DNA from: a virus
IMG/VR virus record: IMGVR_UViG_3300017987_000001
Span: 143,858 to 207,857 of that record
Length of the DNA: 64,000 nt
Direction: 5' to 3' (one strand)
Shown here: one piece after another, positions 62,976 to 63,085 of the stretch
Position numbering within the stretch: the first letter of the stretch is position 1
How the letters are laid out: every line of letters starts with the position of its first letter
Notes under the pieces: model-generated
Databases searched by the model: none
Told to the model about the DNA's origin: nothing
The model's input: the letters and a program-made list of their open reading frames with translations, nothing else
Program-made: the position numbers and the translations under genes

Positions 62976-63085
62976 GTGAACAGCGACAAGAAGTGGAGAG
63001 TGATAGCCTCCATAGGCTTCCCCCGGTAATCGGGGGATCAGGAATTGAACTTGATGTACACCCTACCGGGCATTCGCTGTATCAC
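62976..63085 (-). ncRNA. Structured element, copy 2, holding a tRNA-like fold without anticodon arm
   Basis: Outer stem ACAGCGA/TCGCTGT extended by GTGA/TCAC, inner stem GGGTG/CACTC. The insert contains a T-arm-like TCAAG-TTCAATT-CCTGA, then TCCCCCG, ATTAC and CGGGGGA (an acceptor-like 7-bp stem in permuted order), then AGCCT/AGGCT. No anticodon arm is present, so the element stem occupies its place. Confidence 0.6.
63005..63054 (-). other. Permuted tRNA-like domain without anticodon arm
   Basis: In the order T arm, acceptor 3' strand, 5-base linker, acceptor 5' strand, D-like hairpin. No encoded CCA and no anticodon. Whether it is a decoy, a degraded gene or a functional RNA cannot be told from sequence. 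Confidence 0.5.

What the first reader, a model, noticed from the sequence alone, without database searches (positions are those of the whole stretch)
62976..63085. Element copy with a tRNA-like insert that lacks an anticodon arm
T-arm-like hairpin, acceptor-like 7-bp stem in permuted order and a D-like hairpin are present; the place of the anticodon arm is taken by the element stem itself. It may be a decayed permuted tRNA, a decoy for tRNA-processing or tRNA-cutting enzymes, or the ancestral form.
Basis: partly seen in the sequence, partly recalled or inferred. Interest (0 to 1): 0.75.

Follow-up and report, generated by a model that had tools for sequence, protein, structure and literature searches.

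The report
Phage Y RNA mimicking a tRNA
The stretch is one of six bacterial-type Y RNAs in a large phage that also carries the matching Ro60 protein gene; its tRNA-like part without an anticodon arm is the normal form of the known 'YrlA' RNA, although two neighbouring Y RNAs carry a complete rearranged tRNA with an anticodon.

Summary
On the minus strand (62978-63083) there is a T-arm-like hairpin, a 7-bp acceptor-like stem and a D-like hairpin in permuted order, closed by the repeated 'element' stem. This composite occurs only three times in 64 kb (this copy and two element copies beside it) and in 0 of 60,000 shuffles. The element is a bacterial Y RNA stem. Rfam YrlA (RF02553) aligns over its full length with three copies, though below its curated cut-off. 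The same virus encodes a Ro60/Rsr protein. The stem's second helix covaries across 80 copies, mostly from other phages. YrlA is already described as a circularly permuted tRNA mimic without an anticodon arm, so the finding is an ordinary, somewhat degenerate YrlA rather than a decayed tRNA. What stands out is next to it. Two sister Y RNAs hold complete permuted tRNA modules whose anticodon arm is split by the Y stem; removing the Y stem gives Arg(ACG) and Met(CAT) calls. The same architecture occurs in other phages and in bacterial rsr-rtcB operons. None of the three modules encodes CCA, while all 32 ordinary tRNAs in the window do, and no RNA ligase was found. Mimicry is therefore more likely than hidden tRNA genes.

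The parts
62978..63083 (-). The finding (E4): YrlA-type Y RNA, P1/P2 stem plus T-arm, acceptor and D-like module without anticodon arm
   Evidence: RF02553 full-length 1-114/114, 27.3 bits, E 2.1e-4; composite search; fold z -2.86
63074..63080 (-). E4 P1, 5' strand (Ro60-type stem, runs into CGAATG)
   Evidence: pairs with 62980-62986; sequence
62980..62986 (-). E4 P1, 3' strand (CTTGTCG motif)
63059..63064 (-). E4 P2, 5' strand AGGGTG (partner CACTCT 62997-63002)
   Evidence: P2 covaries over 80 elements
63038..63054 (-). E4 T-arm-like hairpin, loop TTCAATT
63019..63037 (-). E4 acceptor-like 7-bp stem closed by loop ATTAC; no CCA
63005..63018 (-). E4 D-like hairpin with GG in the loop
63184..63321 (-). 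E5: Y RNA with a complete permuted tRNA module (63215-63293), anticodon ACG at 63286-63288, anticodon stem CA|TCC/GGATG split by the Y stem
   Evidence: RF02553 48.4 bits, E 1.1e-9; ARAGORN calls the de-permuted form Arg(ACG)
63611..63753 (-). E6: Y RNA with a complete permuted tRNA module (63651-63727), anticodon CAT at 63724-63726, split in the anticodon loop
   Evidence: RF02553 35.5 bits, E 6.2e-6; ARAGORN calls the de-permuted form Met(CAT)
62706..62776 (-). E1: Y RNA stem without tRNA module
   Evidence: z -3.25
63336..63391 (-). E2: Y RNA stem without tRNA module
   Evidence: z -2.0
63526..63598 (-). E3: Y RNA stem without tRNA module
   Evidence: z -3.53
63089..63177 (-). tRNA-Tyr(GTA) missed by ARAGORN; its CCA ends about 6 nt before E4
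   Evidence: sequence; partial tRNA-Sec match
62890..62965 (-). tRNA-Val(TAC), next gene after E4

Best explanation
The finding is a YrlA-type Y RNA of a large Ro60-encoding phage. Shown by sequence: a two-helix Y stem (P1/P2) with the conserved CGAATG and CTTGTCG motifs carries a circularly permuted tRNA-like module (T arm, acceptor, D arm) in place of a terminal loop. The same virus encodes a Ro60/Rsr ring protein. Inferred from what is known of the family: the RNA is cut out of the tRNA-array transcript between tRNA-Tyr and tRNA-Val, the P1 stem binds the phage Rsr ring, and the tRNA-like face engages tRNA-binding proteins (modification enzymes, and PNPase or another partner), gating or tethering the Ro60 particle during infection. 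The sister copies E5 and E6 add an anticodon arm to the mimic. They are most likely fuller tRNA mimics rather than hidden tRNA genes.
For: RF02553 YrlA aligns end to end with E4, E5 and E6. The own virus encodes a 572-aa Ro60/Rsr homologue: vWA_Ro60 35.2 bits over its cut-off, TROVE just under its cut-off, PDB 2nvo Rsr E 3.8e-16; it is 44% identical to the Rsr of Rhizobium rsr-rtcB operons and 45% to that of Myxococcus phage Mx1. Of 30 viral records, 29 picked only by RNA patterns plus the own one, 18 encode vWA_Ro60 above cut-off, against 49 of 50,697 phage records with a tblastn relative. P2 pairing holds across 80 elements with 40 different strands: 5.25 matched against 4.19 mismatched, 0 of 20,000 permutations. 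The Rhizobium etli rsr-rtcB gap holds a canonical YrlA (97.9 bits) built like E4 among five Y RNAs. The literature describes YrlA as Y stem plus D, T and acceptor arms (PMC8394870) and as a circular permutation of tRNA (PMC11472068). All 32 ordinary tRNAs in the window encode CCA and the three modules do not.
Against: All three matches lie below Rfam's gathering score of 69 bits, and E4 is the weakest (27.3), with a mismatch in its T-stem and a short D-like hairpin. The rsr gene is not adjacent to the Y RNAs (about 46.5-48.3 kb on a 207.9-kb linear contig, against 206.6-207.6 kb). Expression, Rsr binding and function are not shown. No close relative of this virus was found to test conservation of E4 itself.
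Confidence: 0.87

Rival explanations
1. E5 and E6 are true permuted tRNA genes: the Y stem is removed like an intron, the ends are ligated and the acceptor loop is opened, giving tRNA-Arg(ACG) and tRNA-Met/Ile(CAU). E4 is then a decayed copy.
For: Removing the Y stem gives ARAGORN tRNA calls for E5 and E6 and for a relative, L042. Anticodon stems pair across the Y stem in other phages: 16 of 23 modules reach at least 4.5 of 5, against 25% for mismatched partners, 0 of 20,000 permutations; 5 of 5 bacterial examples also pair fully.
Against: No CCA in the modules while 32 of 32 ordinary tRNAs encode it. The acceptor stem is closed by short loops, TTCG in some relatives. The best-fitting cut site varies between TACA| and TACAT|, unlike a splice site. 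No RtcB or Rnl2-type ligase found in the own virus; the Rnl1 search was uninformative because nothing rang in its controls.
Confidence: 0.08
2. The tRNA modules are decoys that occupy or absorb tRNA-cutting or tRNA-modifying enzymes of host defence. E5/E6 present an anticodon loop as bait, while E4 competes through the elbow only.
For: Modules in different phages show different anticodon loops, many ending in AA. The authors of PMC7790460 propose YrlA as a competitive inhibitor of an anticodon nuclease. The Y RNAs lie inside a phage tRNA array.
Against: AC-bearing Y RNAs also occur in bacterial rsr-rtcB operons, so they are not phage-specific anti-defence devices. No target nuclease was identified. 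E4 has no anticodon.
Confidence: 0.2
3. The element is not a Y RNA but another structured RNA, such as a self-cleaving motif or a tRNA intron, that resembles YrlA by chance.
For: Scores are under the Rfam cut-off. E5 has a weak twister-sister match at E 0.31.
Against: Full-length YrlA alignment with motif and pairing agreement; Ro60 co-occurrence; near-identical motifs in rsr-rtcB gaps.
Confidence: 0.03

Closest known systems
YrlA, bacterial Y RNA-like A (Rfam RF02553; Salmonella YrlA structure 6CU1)
   Same: Y stem with CGAATG...CTTGTCG, permuted T-arm, acceptor and D-arm module, no anticodon arm, Ro60 gene in the same genome
   Different: E4 is more degenerate (T-stem mismatch, short D-like hairpin, 27.3 bits) and is far from rsr, inside a phage tRNA array with five other Y RNAs
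Y RNAs of Rhizobium/Shinella/Xanthomonas/Novosphingobium plasmids next to rsr (L158-L162; rtcB annotated beyond the gap in all but L162, which has no annotation)
   Same: Tandem Y RNAs; AC-less and AC-bearing modules side by side in R. etli; Rsr 38-44% identical to the phage's
   Different: Encoded next to rsr; the phage has no detected rtcB and its Y RNAs sit among tRNA genes
Permuted tRNA genes (Cyanidioschyzon, Thermofilum; from own knowledge)
   Same: 3' half precedes 5' half, joined by a short linker (E5, E6)
   Different: The junction is a Y RNA stem, no splice motif, no CCA; E4 has no anticodon arm at all
tmRNA tRNA-like domain
   Same: tRNA mimic without an anticodon arm; permuted forms exist
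   Different: No tag reading frame or pseudoknots recognised; only weak partial Rfam matches far below cut-off, none of them at E4

Membership tests
YrlA / bacterial Y RNA | Full-length match to the family covariance model | tested here: inconclusive
   1-114/114 with E 2e-4 (E4), 1e-9 (E5), 6e-6 (E6), but all below the gathering score of 69
YrlA / bacterial Y RNA | Two-helix Y stem with conserved motifs and covarying pairs | tested here: met
   six copies in the window; P2 covariation over 80 elements
YrlA / bacterial Y RNA | Circularly permuted T-arm, acceptor and D-arm module without anticodon arm | tested here: met
   E4; known architecture in PMC8394870 and PMC11472068
YrlA / bacterial Y RNA | Ro60/Rsr encoded in the same genome | tested here: met
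   572-aa vWA_Ro60/TROVE protein
YrlA / bacterial Y RNA | Gene next to rsr (typical, not treated here as defining) | tested here: not met
   rsr at about 46.5-48.3 kb, Y RNAs at 206.6-207.6 kb of the record; other phages also separate them
YrlA / bacterial Y RNA | Binds Rsr; carries tRNA modifications (D, pseudouridine) | not testable with these tools
   needs biochemistry
Permuted tRNA gene | Complete cloverleaf after de-permutation | tested here: not met
   E4: ARAGORN finds none; E5 and E6 meet it
Permuted tRNA gene | Encoded or addable CCA and processable ends | tested here: inconclusive
   no CCA encoded in E4-E6, against 32/32 ordinary tRNAs; post-transcriptional addition cannot be excluded
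Permuted tRNA gene | Splicing and ligation machinery or a consistent splice junction | tested here: inconclusive
   no RtcB/Rnl2 in the own virus; junction position varies; host enzymes unknown

The most novel reading that the evidence does not exclude
Phage and bacterial Y RNA stems serve as a general scaffold that displays interchangeable mimic modules: AC-less tRNA elbows, complete permuted tRNAs with chosen anticodons, and 23S rRNA pieces. Ro60 holds this set of baits to capture or control enzymes that cut or modify tRNA and rRNA during infection.
Probability: 0.2. Interest if true: 0.75.

Novelty: new member of a known kind. Interest (0 to 1): 0.4.

Why it matters
It turns a puzzling 'tRNA without an anticodon arm' into a recognised Y RNA and shows that Ro60/Y RNA systems are richly elaborated in large phages: six Y RNAs here, in three grades of tRNA mimicry. 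The grades side by side, in phage and in a bacterial rsr-rtcB operon, make the old question of what the tRNA face of Y RNA is for directly testable by comparing E4 with E5 and E6.

Tried and rejected
Permuted functional tRNA (no CCA in the modules, closed acceptor loops, variable junction, no ligase found). Decayed tRNA as the default reading (AC-less is the family norm). Self-cleaving ribozyme (no Rfam ribozyme match worth the name). Chance hairpins. Pattern scan of genome contigs gave 5 loci, mostly chance; only L023 looks like a Y RNA. The search for related loci with the Rsr protein found no viral relatives. The PF09511 search was uninformative. Chen 2014, Sim and Wolin 2018/2020 and Wang 2018 are not in the held library, so whether AC-bearing Y RNAs were already described there is unknown.

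Full report
WHAT IS THERE. The window is the last 64 kb of a 207,857-nt virus record. Its right end is a tRNA array on the minus strand with 31 of the window's 32 ARAGORN tRNAs. Among them lie six copies of one RNA element with the signature CGAATG-N6-7-GGG-NN-TACAT; none is expected by chance. Three copies have a small terminal loop (E1, E2, E3). One (E4, the finding) carries a T-arm-like hairpin, a 7-bp acceptor-like stem and a D-like hairpin in permuted order. Two (E5, E6) carry complete permuted tRNAs. A composite search finds the T-arm / 7-bp stem / D-hairpin arrangement only in E4, E5 and E6 on both strands of the window, and in 0 of 60,000 shuffles of E4.

WHAT IT IS. A permissive Rfam search aligns YrlA (RF02553, Y RNA-like) from first to last model position with E5 (48.4 bits), E6 (35.5) and E4 (27.3), on the right strand and with the motifs in register. 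None reaches the curated cut-off of 69. Independent support comes from the protein partner. The same record encodes a 572-aa protein with a vWA_Ro60 domain above cut-off, a TROVE match at the cut-off and phmmer similarity to Deinococcus Rsr, E 3.8e-16. Its nearest relatives found are the Rsr of Myxococcus phage Mx1 (45%) and of Rhizobium operons with rtcR-rsr-gap-rtcB order (44%).

THE ELEMENT ELSEWHERE. Pattern scans gave about 80 usable copies, mostly in other viral records. Of 30 records, 18 encode vWA_Ro60 above cut-off, although 29 of them were chosen only by RNA patterns. Some records are short fragments, so this is a lower bound; as a loose background, 49 of 50,697 phage records have a tblastn relative of this Rsr, a different test. 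The second helix, P2, which the finder did not require to pair, pairs far better within elements than between them: 5.25 of 6 against 4.19, 0 of 20,000 permutations, 40 different 5' strands.

WHY THE MISSING ANTICODON ARM IS ORDINARY. YrlA is described as a Y stem plus D, T and acceptor arms (PMC8394870) and as a circular permutation of tRNA (PMC11472068). The canonical YrlA of the R. etli operon (97.9 bits) has this form. E4 is therefore the standard form, though a worn one: one T-stem mismatch and a short D-like hairpin.

WHAT IS LESS ORDINARY. In E5 and E6 the anticodon arm is present. In E5 its 5' strand is split by the Y stem (CA|TCC pairing with GGATG, loop ATACGGA); in E6 the split falls in the loop. 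Removing the Y stem gives ARAGORN calls of Arg(ACG) and Met(CAT). Across 23 class I modules, mostly from other phages, the stem formed by joining the two halves scores at least 4.5 of 5 in 16, against 25% of mismatched pairs; 0 of 20,000 permutations do as well. Caveats: the score takes the best of several registers, in controls as well; some modules come from the same virus; and three modules were added by hand after an automatic filter missed them. The remaining 20 give 13 of 20, but the permutation test was not repeated without the three. Five bacterial AC-bearing modules, also picked by eye, all pair fully. Forms with and without the arm stand together in R. etli, so the AC-bearing form is not an oddity of this phage. 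Whether it is already described could not be checked.

FUNCTIONAL tRNAs OR MIMICS. All 32 ordinary tRNAs in the window encode CCA: the script flags 31, and the Met gene at 61131 has it just beyond ARAGORN's boundary. The three Y RNA modules do not, and their acceptor stems are closed by short loops. No RtcB or Rnl2-type ligase was found. The best-fitting junction shifts by a base between copies. Mimicry is therefore favoured.

HOW IT MOST LIKELY WORKS. Shown: structure, covariation, Ro60 in the genome, position between tRNA-Tyr and tRNA-Val. Inferred from the family: tRNA-processing enzymes release the RNA, P1 binds the Rsr ring, and the tRNA face binds tRNA-recognising proteins. YrlA is a substrate of DusA and TruB, and Y RNA tethers Rsr to PNPase (reviewed in PMC8394870; Deinococcus work summarised in PMC7790460). 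A decoy role has been suggested for YrlA (PMC7790460) and fits E5/E6 better than E4.

VERDICT. A new member of a known kind. The surroundings deserve more attention than the finding itself.

Noticed in passing
L055 around 206-415 (+) and L074 minus strand (match 2973-3013): Two Y RNA-like elements of about 205-210 nt from different phages carry AACGGTCCTAAGGTAGCGA, which matches a universally conserved 23S rRNA stretch (from own knowledge, not checked against an rRNA database), shortly after the TACA of the Y stem. A possible rRNA-mimic module.
   Followed up: partly
L158:4958-5092, L161:4339, L162:4600: Bacterial Y RNAs whose insert reads as a whole tRNA permuted in the D loop (GGTAGAGC, anticodon arm, T arm, acceptor, TAGCTCAG), a different permutation site from E5/E6.
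   Followed up: no
L060 (minus 1328 and 1695), L074 (minus 5926 and 7767), L075 (minus 3259 and 3567): Two further insert types shared by Y RNAs of three phages; one has a T-arm-like hairpin with loop GGCAGAT and a long arm, the other has no clear tRNA resemblance.
   Followed up: no
L045, L047, L051, L060, L074: Y RNAs with class II (Leu/Ser-like, long variable arm) permuted tRNA modules.
   Followed up: partly
29279-29353 (-): tRNA with anticodon CTA (called tRNA-Pyl by ARAGORN), a possible amber suppressor, far from the array.
   Followed up: no
63089-63177 (-): tRNA-Tyr(GTA) gene missed by ARAGORN.
   Followed up: partly
57656-60203 (-): Genes inside the tRNA array look like NAD metabolism (nicotinate phosphoribosyltransferase, nicotinamidase and NAD synthase by eye; no search run).
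   Followed up: no
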